64,000 nucleotides of DNA. Origin: a bacterium (GTDB lineage Bacteria > Zixibacteria > MSB-5A5 > WJJR01). A program made the position numbers and the translations under genes. Positions 31,188 to 36,462 of the stretch are shown here, piece after piece (the first letter of the stretch is position 1; every line of letters begins with the position of its first letter). Location: contig JAKAKI010000018.1 of assembly GCA_021813505.1 (NCBI GenBank), forward strand, positions 1 to 64,000, written 5' to 3'. The notes beneath the pieces are model-generated. The model was not told where the DNA came from. It did no database searches and saw only the letters and a list, made by a program, of their open reading frames with translations.

Positions 31188-32627
31188 CTATTGAGACGCC
31201 GGTTGTGCCGTCCAAAGCCTCGGAGTTATGAGAATGGAGATTTCTTTCTCTTCAATCGAGGTGGTCGTGTGCCTAAACAAGAGTCCGAGAAGGGGAATGG
31301 AGCCAAGCAGTGGTACCTTCCGGACAGCCTCGATACGGTTCTTTACAAGAAGACCACCGATCACAACAGTCTCGCCGTCGTTCACGCGAACCTTGGTGGT
31401 GACACTGCGCTTGTTTGTCACCGGCAGGCCAGTGCTGCCGGAGCCGATCACGTCGGACACCTCGGGTGACACTTCCAGGGTGATTGCTCCCGCCTCCGAG
31501 ACGTACGGGATGATCGTCAGTGCAATCCCGGTCTTGATGACCTCGAGCTGAGCGTACGTGTATGTCTGTGATCCACTGAGCATCGAGAAGTATTCTTCGC
31601 GCCCGATGAAAATCTGCGCCTTGTTCCCTTCAACTGTCGCGATGCGGGGATTGGCACGGATGTGGGCCTTCCCTTCATCCACCAGAGCATTCAGCCGGAT
31701 CTGATACTGTCCAATCCAGCCGGACTTCTGGATCCCGATCCGGTCAAAGACCACGGACAGCGAGGTGTCATTGCGCAATGCCTCGTTAGGGAGTGCACCA
31801 ATCTGCAGTTTCCTCTCTGTCCCCTTGGAGGCGGTAAGATCCCAAGAGAGCCCCAATTGGCGGCTGATATCTGAGGACATCTCGGTCACCAGCGCTTCGA
31901 TCATGACCTGCCGTGGGGGATGGTCGATCTGCGCCAGATCTGCCTGCATGCGGGCAATCATCTCGGGCGAACCGGTCAGCGTCGCCGTATTCGTTTCGGC
32001 GTCTATTCGGACAAACGGTTCGTAGTACGTCGACAGCAGCTTCAGGATGTCGCCGGCCTTGATAAAACTCGGGCGATACAGCACGGTTTCGGTGATGAGT
32101 GGAAACGACGGATTGCTTGGACGCGGAGAACCGACGAGGTAATACCCATTCAGCCAGCGAAATGTCAGGCCAAACGGGCTCAGAACGCGCCGCATGGCTT
32201 CTTCGAAGGGCAAATCGGTGAGTTCAACCGTGAGGATTCCGGTCACCGACTCGTCGGCAATGACATTGACGAAACACTGCGTGGCCATCGCCTGGAGGAT
32301 TTCACGCACGTCGGTATCGTAGAAGACGTTGGTAACCCGGCAGTCCGGCCGCGCCGGGTCAGAGTTTTGGGTCAGAGCCGCTTTGGGAACGGGGTTTGGC
32401 TGGTTGCCTGGGGTGATCCCCGACGACGAATCGCCAGGTACGGATGTATCGACCCGAGGGTCGCCACTCCCCGGATTATCCTGCGCACGTAAGTCGCCGG
32501 CGAGACCAATCGTCCCGGCGAAGACAAGAGCGGCGGCGATCAGAATCCCAGCCAGCGCTCTACTCGATCCCGAGAGATTCTTTGATGACAAATTCACGCT
32601 CCAGAGTTGCCGGTTTCTTCTCGCCAT
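31188..32627 (-). CDS. Secretin (outer-membrane multimeric pore) with STN domain
   Basis: About 479 residues. Signal or anchor segment ALAGILIAAALVFAGTIG; a Pro/Ser-rich linker; an STN/N0-like domain (VTNVFYDTDVREILQAMA to YYLVGS); an N1-like domain (VLYRPSFIKAGDILKLLSTY); then the secretin core (ANPRIATVEGNKAQIFIG, VNDGETVVIGGLLVKN, VPLLGSIPLLGLLFRH, ILITPRL). VPLLGSIPLLG is the best-known secretin signature. ATG 32627 overlaps the upstream gene by 68 bases; GTG 32597 is an alternative. There are no GspE/F-, PilB/C- or Tad-type partners nearby, and the gene is coupled to a PapD-like protein. Confidence 0.9.
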   Translation of the reverse strand: MARRNRQLWSVNLSSKNLSGSSRALAGILIAAALVFAGTIGLAGDLRAQDNPGSGDPRVDTSVPGDSSSGITPGNQPNPVPKAALTQNSDPARPDCRVTNVFYDTDVREILQAMATQCFVNVIADESVTGILTVELTDLPFEEAMRRVLSPFGLTFRWLNGYYLVGSPRPSNPSFPLITETVLYRPSFIKAGDILKLLSTYYEPFVRIDAETNTATLTGSPEMIARMQADLAQIDHPPRQVMIEALVTEMSSDISRQLGLSWDLTASKGTERKLQIGALPNEALRNDTSLSVVFDRIGIQKSGWIGQYQIRLNALVDEGKAHIRANPRIATVEGNKAQIFIGREEYFSMLSGSQTYTYAQLEVIKTGIALTIIPYVSEAGAITLEVSPEVSDVIGSGSTGLPVTNKRSVTTKVRVNDGETVVIGGLLVKNRIEAVRKVPLLGSIPLLGLLFRHTTTSIEEKEISILITPRLWTAQPASQ

Positions 32628-34272
32628 AGAAGACTTCCACCATCGCCCGGTAACGGCCAGGCACAAAGCCGGCCAGGACCTGCGAGGAGAGTATCCTGGC
32701 TTGGCCTGGCAGCACGTACGCCGTGTCGGCTTCGAATTTGACTTTCGCGAGGTTCTCAAACCGTCCCTCGGTTACAACCTCGACTGAGTCGAGTTTGCCA
32801 GGGGCACGCCAGAACTGAATCTCGGCGTTTCCTGAGAGCCGCACGTGGATATTCCCGGTGTTGCGGAACTCGGTATTCAGGACAACAGACGATCCGGGCT
32901 GCTGATCTACACCGATCTTGGTAACCTCGCCACTCTTCTCAAGACCCGGTGGAACCGTCAGGAAGATGGGGAAGTTAAGCTGCGACGGCAATGTCGTGGC
33001 GCCGCTGTCCTGGGCGGACTTCGCATTTAGAATGATGCACCCGTAATACCCGCCTTTGGCATCGGTCGGAATGGTCAGCGATGCCCTCAGATTCTGCGCC
33101 CGGGATGGATCCAGGGTGAAGCGAAGCGGGTCGATTTTCAACCAGGGGATACAACTGCGGCCCGTGTCCGGTACTTCCTCTGACACCCACATCTGCCCCC
33201 GCATCCCAAAGAAGACTTGTCCCATGCTCACATCGACGTTGATCGGTTTGTCTTCCCTGTTCATCACGTTGATGCCGAAGATGCGCGTGCCACCCGCTGG
33301 GATTGACTTGTCAAAGACCTCGGGTCTGTATTCCACGAAGAGCGACCGTGCCGCCCCCGTGGCGCCAACGCGGGAGGAATGCTGCTTCGTGATTTCGAAT
33401 GTGGATTGTGAGACCGCCGGTGACCGTCCGCCATATTGCACAAACGCCTTAATCGTGTATTTGCCGGGAGCCGGGAGTCCGGTAATCGTCTGAATGGACG
33501 CTTTCGTGCCTGGGAGTATCAACCCCCGCCCCCCCCCAAGACGCGTGTCCTGGATCAAACGGTGGTTTTCGTCACGAATGACCATCCGGCCCGCGGTGAC
33601 GACATGCACGTTCCCCGTGTTTTCCACATCAACGCTCACGAGCATTCCACGATCGCCAAACTGCTTTGCCAAGGCGGAGTCCTGAGCGGTTGGTGTGATC
33701 TCAATGTCCCCGGTGAGCATTCGGCGCTGGGTGCCGGGACGTCCCTTGACGATAATCTCAAACCAGGACGGGACTTGAAATTGGTATTCAAACATCGCCT
33801 CCATGACATCCGGGGAGGCTTTGCGGTCTTCCTGCAGGACTTCAAAAACGACCGCACCATAGGCGCCGCCGATCGCCCGATAGGGAACTTCGACCTTGGC
33901 TGCCACTTGGCGCATTTCACCCGGAGGGATGTCAGCCAGCGTATCCAGGAGCGTGATCCAGCTGACGCACGAGTAGGACATCGTGGTGTCGGACAGCTTG
34001 TAGTCCCCCCGCGATGACTGATACATGTCCCTCGTGGACATCCTGATCCGCAGCGGCTTCTCTTTGTTCTGGTTGGTCAGCTCGAAGTTGACCAGCGAAC
34101 GCGAACCCGGCGTCAATTCGAGCGAGACGATTTGCGGGCTCAGGAGAAGGTCAAACTGTGCGTGCGACGGCCCGGCCCAAAGAGAGACCAGGCCGATCAG
34201 TGCCAAGCCGCCGATGATGCTGCTGGCGGAAAAGAGTCTCGGGCAACGAGTCTTGAATTGTATCCTCATCAT
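32560..34272 (-). CDS. Tandemly duplicated periplasmic PapD/DUF916-like protein
   Basis: A 570-residue exported protein (signal peptide residues 16-38, ending SHAQ). It is built of two homologous halves of about 270 residues. Half one contains LTPGSRSLVNFELTNQN, SCVSWITLL, GGAYGAVVFEV, VENTGNVHV and PGKYTIKAFVQYGG. Half two has the counterparts SIPAGGTRIFGINVMNRED, SCIPWLKID, GGYYGCIILNA, FRNTGNIHV and PGRYRAMVEVFYGE. Each half looks like an immunoglobulin-type chaperone domain followed by a second beta-domain, as in PapD-like or WxL-interacting (DUF916) proteins. GAGGTGCG precedes the start. The neighbouring exported proteins are natural candidates for clients. Confidence 0.75.
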   Translation of the reverse strand: MMRIQFKTRCPRLFSASSIIGGLALIGLVSLWAGPSHAQFDLLLSPQIVSLELTPGSRSLVNFELTNQNKEKPLRIRMSTRDMYQSSRGDYKLSDTTMSYSCVSWITLLDTLADIPPGEMRQVAAKVEVPYRAIGGAYGAVVFEVLQEDRKASPDVMEAMFEYQFQVPSWFEIIVKGRPGTQRRMLTGDIEITPTAQDSALAKQFGDRGMLVSVDVENTGNVHVVTAGRMVIRDENHRLIQDTRLGGGRGLILPGTKASIQTITGLPAPGKYTIKAFVQYGGRSPAVSQSTFEITKQHSSRVGATGAARSLFVEYRPEVFDKSIPAGGTRIFGINVMNREDKPINVDVSMGQVFFGMRGQMWVSEEVPDTGRSCIPWLKIDPLRFTLDPSRAQNLRASLTIPTDAKGGYYGCIILNAKSAQDSGATTLPSQLNFPIFLTVPPGLEKSGEVTKIGVDQQPGSSVVLNTEFRNTGNIHVRLSGNAEIQFWRAPGKLDSVEVVTEGRFENLAKVKFEADTAYVLPGQARILSSQVLAGFVPGRYRAMVEVFYGEKKPATLEREFVIKESLGIE

Positions 34273-34400
34273 CGCACCTCATCGTCCTTTGCAGCGAGTG
34301 CCTTTTCCGCATAGTAAGGTAAGGCGATTTCTCAAGCAGAATGCAAAGAAATTTGCCCGCGCACTCATACCTTGGAAGAACACCGGCCTGGCGGAGACAA

Positions 34401-34436
34401 AATTGACAGGCGCGCCAGCCAGACCGGCGCGCCTGT
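34401..34436 (-). terminator. Intrinsic terminator-like hairpin between subunit-like genes and chaperone-like gene
   Basis: On the minus strand ACAGGCGCGCC (complement of 34426-34436), a 9-base loop and GGCGCGCCTGT (34406-34416) form a perfect 11-bp GC-rich stem. It is followed by CAATTTTG. It lies 82 bases after the second exported gene and 129 bases before the chaperone-like gene, so it could reduce expression of the downstream genes. Confidence 0.7.
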
Positions 34437-34517
34437 TGCCGAACTCATGCGGCAAGCGTGAACCACAAAACCCGGTAAAGTTAACTGCTCGAGGTCTGCG
34501 ATTCCTCCGTGCGGCCC

Positions 34518-35243
34518 TTATAAGGGCTTCCAGGTACCATCGGTGTTAAGCCACGGTTTCAGGCACTGCACCGAGAGGGTAATCTGGGCTCTGTTAATGT
34601 AGTCGCACGCACCATTGCATTGCACGACGCAGATCTTGTTCCATAGCTTCCAGGCGATCCCATAGTGGAGCGGCCAGGGGCGCACGCCGGTACCGATCAC
34701 ATCTTTCAGGAGATCATCGCTGGCGTTCAGATCCACCGCCGATGTCCAACCGCGCGCATTCGCTTCCGCGAATCCACCACCATTTGTCTCGAAGGAATAG
34801 GAGACATCGATCGGCGTATGCGTCGGGTCGTAGCACGGGCCTTGCGGGTCGGGCATCAACGGGCCAAAGCCTTCATAGTCGACCAAGACGTCGCCGTTGG
34901 AGGCCAGCCGCGCCTCGATGCTGTTGCCGGCGAAGCAGCCGGGCTTACGGATATACCATTGCCACTCCGTCCAGCCCAGCTTCCAATCGATCCACTGGCC
35001 GACGGATGCGCGAATGACAACCGGGATCAGCCATTTTTCCCTGTTGCAATTGCCCTGCGCTTGTTCGCCCAGCCGGAACAGCCGGGCCTGGCGGAGCTCA
35101 AGATCCAGCGGATTCGGCAGCCATGTTTGTGTTGCCTCATCGAAGTAGAAGACCTCGCTCTCGCCTTGCGCCTGTGCCTGCGCGATGCCGACAAAGGCGA
35201 CAAGCGCCCCGACGGCAAGCAGTAACAGAATTAGCTTCTTCAT
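34518..35243 (-). CDS. Exported protein B, paralogue of its neighbour
   Basis: A 241-residue exported protein with a classic signal peptide (KKLILLLLAVGALVAFVG...AQA). Start ATG 35243 has AAGGAGGGAGCA just upstream. Its later two-thirds align with the upstream gene: WQWYIRKPGCFAGN matches FDFRIRKPEVLAGR, PIDVSYSF matches AIPASYAI, and the end GACDYINRAQITLSVQCL matches KACDYVNSAIITLTIENL. Several cysteines suggest disulphides. I recognise no named family. Gene order and signal peptide fit a secreted structural subunit or surface protein served by the chaperone-like and secretin genes that follow. Confidence 0.7.
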   Translation of the reverse strand: MKKLILLLLAVGALVAFVGIAQAQAQGESEVFYFDEATQTWLPNPLDLELRQARLFRLGEQAQGNCNREKWLIPVVIRASVGQWIDWKLGWTEWQWYIRKPGCFAGNSIEARLASNGDVLVDYEGFGPLMPDPQGPCYDPTHTPIDVSYSFETNGGGFAEANARGWTSAVDLNASDDLLKDVIGTGVRPWPLHYGIAWKLWNKICVVQCNGACDYINRAQITLSVQCLKPWLNTDGTWKPL

Positions 35244-35282
35244 TGCTCCCTCCTTAGGGATTATGGGTGATGAGAGAACTGT

Positions 35283-35307
35283 GACAGTTGCACTGTCGTA
35301 AACTGTC
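35283..35307. promoter_or_regulatory. Operator-like GACAGT/ACTGTC repeats
   Basis: GACAGT (35283-35288), ACTGTC (35292-35297) and ACTGTC (35302-35307) form an inverted pair with 3-base spacing plus a direct copy 10 bases further. The cluster is 40-64 bases upstream of exported protein B, so it may be a regulator site or part of its promoter. Confidence 0.4.
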
Positions 35308-35357
35308 ATGAATGGGTTACGGAGACTGACTCTTTGCGCCCGTCCTCCTTTCAACTC

Positions 35358-36329
35358 CTACGGCCCACCTGCCGAAATTCCGGTTGTATCCAGCATGACG
35401 TTAAGGTTCTCAATCGTCAATGTGATGATGGCCGAATTAACGTAGTCACAGGCCTTAATCGTTCTGTCAGGCGCGAGCCTCGACCAAATGGAGAAGAGGT
35501 GGGGCGTTTCGTCCCCTGGTATGCTGAGAAACTGCTGGTTGAATAGCGCCGGAATAAGAAACTGAACGGGAGGGACTGACTGGTCGGAGGGCGTGATCGC
35601 ATAAGATGCCGGTATCGCGGGGCTCCCGGAACCATCGAGAGGCGCCAGATCATCGAACAGTGAAAAAGTGATCGTCGATGACGTATTCCCCTGGACTTTC
35701 ATTGTGGCCAGGCGGCCCGCAAGCACTTCCGGTTTGCGGATGCGAAAATCGAATTCTGACGCATCGAGCGACCATTGAACACAAGGAAGCTCCTGGCAAT
35801 CCACGACGCCTTGCACCGGAAACTTCTCGCATTCAGTCCCCCCCTTGAGATTCGCAGAGACAATTCCGATGCCGAGAGGATTAATGCCGTCGTAAACAAT
35901 GGTGAAGGTTGTCACCTGCCGCTCTTTCATGCCCTGGTCTGTCTTCAGGCCATAAATCGAGCCACACCACTTACTGTTGTAAGTCTGAGGTCCAGTGAAG
36001 CTGAACAACGGGCTGGATACGGTGATCAGGCTCGCACAGCGAGCGGGAATCGGAAAGGTGAGGTTGCTGAGCGCTGGACAGCCCGAGTATACCGTGTACT
36101 TGCAGGTGGTCTGCTGGGTAACGCTGTCAAAATCGCAAACGCCAACGATGCGACTTGGAATTCTCGCAGCGAGTTCGCGGCTGTCAGGCTCGGCCGATGA
36201 GGTGGCTTGCGCGCCGGCGATACTCGGAAGTGAAAGGGACGCTATCGCCCCAAGAATCAGGAGTATGCCACGTGCCCAATGATTGCGACACAGACAATAA
36301 GGAAAAGCTCGACAAGTAAGTCTTGACAC
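35358..36329 (-). CDS. Exported protein A, paralogue of exported protein B
   Basis: A 323-residue exported protein. The preferred start is GTG 36329, directly behind GGTGGAGGCAC; a longer frame to 36395 lacks a ribosome site. The signal peptide (ARGILLILGAIASLSLPSIAGA) follows an unusually long basic N-region. The mature part has about eight Cys. From WSLDASEFDFRIRKPEVLAG to its end (ACDYVNSAIITLTIENL) it aligns with exported protein B. No known domain was recognised. It is the first gene of the secretin locus, 127 bases after a probable promoter. Confidence 0.7.
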   Translation of the reverse strand: MSRLTCRAFPYCLCRNHWARGILLILGAIASLSLPSIAGAQATSSAEPDSRELAARIPSRIVGVCDFDSVTQQTTCKYTVYSGCPALSNLTFPIPARCASLITVSSPLFSFTGPQTYNSKWCGSIYGLKTDQGMKERQVTTFTIVYDGINPLGIGIVSANLKGGTECEKFPVQGVVDCQELPCVQWSLDASEFDFRIRKPEVLAGRLATMKVQGNTSSTITFSLFDDLAPLDGSGSPAIPASYAITPSDQSVPPVQFLIPALFNQQFLSIPGDETPHLFSIWSRLAPDRTIKACDYVNSAIITLTIENLNVMLDTTGISAGGP

Positions 36330-36462
36330 GTGCCTCCACCCTCGGGTGCTAGGATTCGTAGGGCCGCCCGTTTTGCATTCGATCTGGTTTGGCACAAACA
36401 GAGTTTACCGCGCTGCTAAGAGGCAGCAGGGACTGCTCGGTAAAAATCCATTGTCAGTGCTT

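What the first reader, a model, noticed from the sequence alone, without database searches (positions are those of the whole stretch)
31188..36329. Secretin linked to PapD-like chaperone and two paralogous exported proteins: possible new secretin-dependent surface system
On one strand, in transcription order: exported protein A, its paralogue B, a terminator-like hairpin, a duplicated PapD/DUF916-like periplasmic protein, and a secretin. Secretins normally work with type II/III/IV pilus or Tad machinery (ATPase, platform protein, peptidase); none of these is present here. Chaperone-usher loci have subunit, chaperone, then usher in this same order. Here the usher place is taken by a secretin. 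This suggests an undescribed assembly or export route. What is seen: gene order, signatures and signal peptides. Inferred: the coupling of functions.
Basis: partly seen in the sequence, partly recalled or inferred. Interest (0 to 1): 0.85.

Follow-up and report, generated by a model that had tools for sequence, protein, structure and literature searches.

The report
Chaperone-secretin cassette with paired exported proteins
A four-gene unit found in scattered members of one bacterial phylum couples an immunoglobulin-fold, chaperone-like protein to its own outer-membrane secretin pore and a pair of exported paralogues, without the motor genes secretins normally have, which suggests an undescribed way of putting proteins on the cell surface.

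Summary
On the minus strand of a Zixibacteria-type genome lie exported proteins A and B (paralogous domain), a strong hairpin, a tandem Ig-fold protein (CHP) and a secretin (SEC). CHP is best described as a doubled WxLIP (DUF916/DUF3324)-like protein; by fold it also matches class-5 fimbrial chaperone CfaA. In 133 genomes of the phylum, doubled CHP occurs in 10, always with SEC one or two genes away. SEC forms a separate family (>600 bits against at most 211 for every other secretin); the two SEC loci without a CHP neighbour lie at contig ends. The A/B family occurs in exactly six genomes, all with CHP-SEC. Four other genomes carry CHP-SEC with an unrelated paralogous pair (X/Y). No motor gene adjoins any copy, while other secretins inspected in these genomes sit in T2SS/T4P clusters. 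Pfam ushers are absent from the phylum. A hairpin recurs between substrate and CHP genes in five of six loci. I conclude that this is a real, conserved, apparently undescribed chaperone-secretin cassette. That SEC exports A/B and CHP chaperones them is inferred. T4P/T2SS motors exist elsewhere in each genome, so action in trans is not excluded; other phyla could not be searched.

The parts
35358..36395 (-). A: exported protein with an N-terminal domain of its own and a C-terminal domain homologous to B (start codon uncertain)
   Evidence: only in genomes with CHP-SEC
34518..35243 (-). B: small exported protein, signal peptide plus the shared domain; proposed substrate/subunit
   Evidence: AF2 model mostly beta, pLDDT 66, no PDB match
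34406..34436 (-). GC-rich 14-bp hairpin between B and CHP; a hairpin is conserved in this position in other loci
32560..34272 (-). CHP: exported, four Ig-fold domains arranged as two tandem WxLIP-like modules; proposed periplasmic chaperone
31188..32588 (-). SEC: secretin of a family restricted to this cassette; STN/N0-like domain, Secretin_N, secretin core; overlaps the end of CHP (ORF to 32759; TTG at 32588 the likelier start)

Best explanation
The cassette encodes a dedicated surface-export pathway. A and B enter the periplasm by the Sec route. CHP, a tandem of two WxLIP/fimbrial-chaperone-like modules, binds them there through an Ig-type strand interaction, keeping them export-competent or unassembled. 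SEC, a minimal secretin used only in this cassette, forms the outer-membrane pore through which they leave, driven by folding or assembly outside rather than by an ATPase, and A/B then form a surface layer, fibre or adhesive complex with B as the basic unit and A as the unit with an extra head domain. The hairpin lets A/B be made in excess over CHP/SEC. SHOWN: gene set, exclusive co-occurrence, homologies, absence of linked motor genes, position-conserved hairpin. INFERRED: binding of A/B by CHP, passage through SEC, energy source, the surface structure, the effect of the hairpin.
For: Doubled CHP in 10 of 133 genomes, always with SEC one or two genes away (with 13-16, 28-30). SEC family separated from all other secretins: 627-707 bits for 11 loci plus one gene truncated by a contig end, every other at most 211 bits; the two SEC loci without CHP are at contig ends; SEC monophyletic, support 0.99. 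A/B only in the six genomes with the first subtype; in G118 the A/B pair stops 34 bases before a contig end and CHP begins 194 bases into another contig. Second subtype has an unrelated but again paralogous pair X/Y (X-Y hhalign 98.8%, no match to B). CHP and SEC genes overlap or lie under 30 bases apart in the first subtype. Position-conserved hairpin between substrate and CHP genes in 5 of 6 loci, z -2.9 to -5.2; six of seven control gaps show none. CHP fold: WxLIP bound to WxL (9i25, E 1.4e-9, target TM 0.55) and fimbrial chaperone CfaA (4ncd, 5.8e-9, target TM 0.48). The other secretins inspected in G000 and G023 lie in T2SS/T4P clusters.
Against: No direct evidence that CHP binds A/B or that A/B pass SEC. 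Every carrier genome also has PilB/PilT-type ATPases elsewhere, so a motor in trans is possible. Secretin machines known to me all have an inner-membrane motor. The B model is of modest confidence and gave no significant structural match, so no subunit-like incomplete Ig fold was shown. CHP lacks a PapD_N match, and many unrelated Ig-fold proteins also match its model.
Confidence: 0.5

Rival explanations
1. A diderm counterpart of the Gram-positive WxL surface cluster: A (large, shared domain at the C-terminus), B (small, shared domain only) and CHP (WxLIP-like) form one surface complex, and the secretin exports the whole complex, CHP included. CHP is then a scaffold and not a chaperone.
For: The layout matches the WxL cluster (small WxL, large WxL with a C-terminal WxL domain, WxLIP; PMC10599100). 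CHP matches WxLIP by sequence and by fold. B has an aromatic-x-aliphatic (W-x-L in several members) motif.
Against: A/B match no WxL model and none of the ten genomes has PF13731. CHP has no C-terminal membrane helix. The second subtype swaps A/B for an unrelated pair while keeping CHP and SEC, which fits a handler of cargo better than a fixed partner.
Confidence: 0.25
2. An orphan secretin served in trans by the T4P or T2SS inner-membrane machine of the same cell; A/B are ordinary T2SS-type substrates with a dedicated outer-membrane gate.
For: PilB/PilT-type ATPases present in all 11 carriers tested.
Against: The other secretins inspected have their own clusters, and most related genomes have such ATPase-bearing clusters' secretins without the cassette. 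In the single-contig genomes the nearest ATPase is about 62 kb (G023) or over 170 kb (G081) away. T2SS does not explain a dedicated Ig-type partner.
Confidence: 0.15
3. The four genes are functionally unrelated neighbours, or the secretin does another task such as DNA uptake.
For: No experiment exists.
Against: Exclusive co-occurrence across several families without conserved flanking genes.
Confidence: 0.05

Closest known systems
Chaperone-usher pathway, including class-5 (CfaA/CfaC) type
   Same: Order subunits, periplasmic Ig-fold chaperone, outer-membrane pore; no linked ATPase; chaperone fold match to CfaA
   Different: Pore is a secretin; no PF00577 usher anywhere in the phylum; CHP is a doubled module with no PapD_N match; A/B show no pilin signature
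WxL/WxLIP clusters of Gram-positive bacteria
   Same: Small and large protein sharing a domain, plus WxLIP-like protein (PMC10599100)
   Different: No WxL domain found; CHP doubled and without membrane anchor; secretin added
T2SS, type IV pilus, Tad and filamentous-phage secretin machines
   Same: Genuine secretin with N-domains
   Different: No linked ATPase, platform, pseudopilin or peptidase; SEC is a separate clade
Curli and Fap systems (from general knowledge, not tested)
   Same: Two paralogous secreted proteins, a periplasmic accessory protein and a motor-less outer-membrane pore
   Different: Pores CsgG and FapF are unrelated to secretins; no amyloid repeats noticed in A/B

Membership tests
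Chaperone-usher pathway | Usher barrel PF00577 | tested here: not met
   0 of 133 genomes; a secretin stands in its place
Chaperone-usher pathway | Two-domain PapD/CfaA-type chaperone | tested here: inconclusive
   Fold match to CfaA 4ncd 5.8e-9; no PapD_N match; a single-module relative elsewhere in the phylum has a sub-threshold PapD_N match
Chaperone-usher pathway | Incomplete-Ig subunits with donor strand | tested here: inconclusive
   B model pLDDT 66, no significant PDB match
T2SS / type IV pilus / Tad | Secretin | tested here: met
   PF00263 8.6e-41; PDB profile matches to GspD and PilQ
T2SS / type IV pilus / Tad | Linked ATPase, platform protein, (pseudo)pilins, peptidase | tested here: not met
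   No such ORFs in the gene tables of any cassette locus by inspection; no PF00437 on the window's contig
WxL cluster | WxLIP (DUF916-DUF3324) protein | tested here: inconclusive
   8 of 10 CHP match WxLIP_PGBD, window copy below Pfam's cut-off; fold match 9i25/9i1y; no membrane helix
WxL cluster | WxL-domain proteins (PF13731) | tested here: not met
   none in ten genomes; A/B unmatched
Curli/Fap nucleation-type secretion | Motor-less outer-membrane pore dedicated to two paralogous subunits | not testable with these tools
   Gene content is compatible, but export was not tested

The most novel reading that the evidence does not exclude
A motor-independent chaperone-secretin pathway: a secretin working like an usher, fed by a dedicated tandem Ig chaperone with exchangeable pairs of paralogous substrates. 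This would be a secretin machine without its own inner-membrane motor.
Probability: 0.4. Interest if true: 0.9.

Novelty: categorically new. Interest (0 to 1): 0.75.

Why it matters
The described secretin systems are powered from the inner membrane (general knowledge). A conserved cassette that pairs a secretin only with an Ig-type chaperone and a substrate pair would show that secretins can serve a motor-less route, would link the Gram-positive WxL surface system to a diderm export pathway, and would give a small system in which to ask what secretins can do alone. The literature searches made here found no description of it, within an open-access library only.

Tried and rejected
Homology of B to X/Y (none) and of A/B to WxL domains (none). 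PDB look-up of B by sequence and by fold (nothing significant). The approximately 860-residue partner of the single-module relatives as a PDB-recognisable usher (none). Search in other phyla: the one genome-contig scan found only the sister genome, plasmid searches gave only generic secretins and one weak CHP-like Deinococcus protein, and the genome search could not be centred on another phylum. A link to type IX secretion through nearby sorting-tail proteins: such tails number 23 to at least 150 per genome, so adjacency is weak evidence. The phylum search covered the same 133 genomes as the class search, so it added nothing. The SEC-CHP identity correlation (r 0.91) is not corrected for shared phylogeny and carries little weight.

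Full report
The window is G000:C65, a genome with 93% CHP identity to a groundwater 'Candidatus Zixiibacteriota' record. I checked the four genes first. All are on the minus strand in the order A, B, CHP, SEC, with signal sequences, and with a 14-bp GC hairpin between B and CHP. SEC is an unambiguous secretin by Pfam, and the best PDB profile matches of its family are GspD and PilQ. It has an STN/N0-like region, one Secretin_N domain and the secretin core; I saw no lipobox. CHP aligns with itself as two modules, and the AlphaFold model (pLDDT 79) shows an all-beta protein that I read as four Ig-type domains. Among its best fold matches, those with high coverage of the target are WxLIP from Enterococcus faecium, in one case bound to a long WxL protein, and the fimbrial chaperone CfaA. 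B is a signal peptide plus one domain; A carries a homologue of that domain at its C-terminus after another domain.

The set is conserved. A search of the 133 held genomes of the phylum (class and phylum searches cover the same genomes) found the doubled CHP in ten. I read the surroundings of all ten. In six (G000, G001, G081, G015, G023, G118) SEC follows CHP directly; in five of these A/B-family genes precede CHP, and in G118 the A/B pair stops 34 bases before the end of one contig while CHP begins 194 bases into another. In three (G032, G019 and, as far as the contig reaches, G025) SEC follows after at most one gene, and in G009 SEC lies two genes before CHP. Flanking genes differ between families, so the cassette travels or is kept as a unit.

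The reverse test also holds. A profile of SEC separates the family sharply: eleven loci score 627 to 707 bits, one gene cut by a contig end scores 249, and every other secretin in the phylum scores at most 211. The two SEC loci outside the ten, G089 and G018, are at contig ends. In a tree with other secretins of the carrier genomes SEC is monophyletic with support 0.99 and splits into the same two subtypes as the gene content. The A/B family occurs in six genomes only, the same six. G015 has one further weak A/B-like match near a contig end elsewhere in its genome.

The second subtype (G009, G032, G019, G025) has no A/B. Instead exported proteins X and Y are found around CHP in G009 and G032, and Y in G019, whose upstream side is missing; G025's contig is partial. 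X and Y are clearly related to one another (hhalign 98.8%) but not to A/B. Two unrelated pairs of exported paralogues served by the same CHP-SEC couple is the pattern expected if A/B or X/Y are cargo and CHP-SEC the handling machine.

No motor, platform, pseudopilin or peptidase gene was seen at any cassette locus. The other secretins of G000 and the PilQ of G023 sit in clusters with pseudopilins, PilB/PilC-type or PilM-N-O-type genes (read from gene order and sequence starts). ATPases of the PilB/PilT family are present elsewhere in all carriers, so motor independence is suggested and not shown. PF00577 ushers are absent from all 133 genomes.

The hairpin matters. In five of six loci tested, including X-CHP in G032, a hairpin significantly stronger than in shuffled sequence lies between the substrate genes and CHP, with different sequences in different families. 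Window and sister genome differ by changes that keep most of the stem paired. Six of seven control gaps show none; the exception is the gap between the two B genes of G023. From general knowledge, intercistronic hairpins in pilus operons let subunits be made in excess over assembly factors, which fits A/B as abundant structural products.

The mechanism I consider most likely is therefore export of A/B through SEC after binding by CHP, with folding or assembly outside as the driving force. The main rival is that A, B and CHP together are the exported surface complex, a diderm version of the WxL cluster, whose small/large/WxLIP layout is strikingly parallel (PMC10599100), although no WxL domain is detectable. 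Both readings put a secretin in a setting I know no precedent for; they differ in where CHP ends up.

On novelty: the membership tests for chaperone-usher, for T2SS/T4P/Tad and for the WxL cluster each fail at a defining feature. Literature searches found no such system, but the library is open-access only and other phyla could not be searched. I rate the arrangement categorically new on present evidence, with function unproven.

Noticed in passing
L019:6469-8781 (G023): The SEC of this genome is fused at its N-terminus to a PorV/FadL-like outer-membrane barrel (NF033709 1.2e-15), and a gene with a T9SS-type sorting tail lies about 60 bases downstream on the same strand; a possible tie between a secretin and type IX secretion.
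   Followed up: partly
L023, L024, L063, L064 and about 40 further genomes: A widespread separate locus in the phylum: DUF4402-type exported proteins, a single-module PapD-like chaperone and a conserved protein of about 860 residues that matches neither PF00577 nor any PDB chain; a candidate divergent usher.
   Followed up: partly
L016:10658-11655: B of the sister genome is interrupted by an apparent frameshift near its C-terminus; could be an assembly error.
   Followed up: no
L061:7653-11737 and L062:4623-8236: A third arrangement: small exported proteins, a chaperone-like protein of about 269 residues and a protein of 936-1091 residues; the CHP-like Deinococcus plasmid gene (L140:7740-8585) is also followed, two genes on, by a protein of about 1058 residues.
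   Followed up: no
L018:16775-17617 (G015): An exported protein between the B paralogues resembles only the N-terminal domain of A (weak, hhalign E 0.017), suggesting that A is a fusion of this type of protein with a B domain.
   Followed up: partly
L020, L021, L022, L060: SEC of the second subtype has an N-terminal extension that looks like TPR-type repeats.
   Followed up: no
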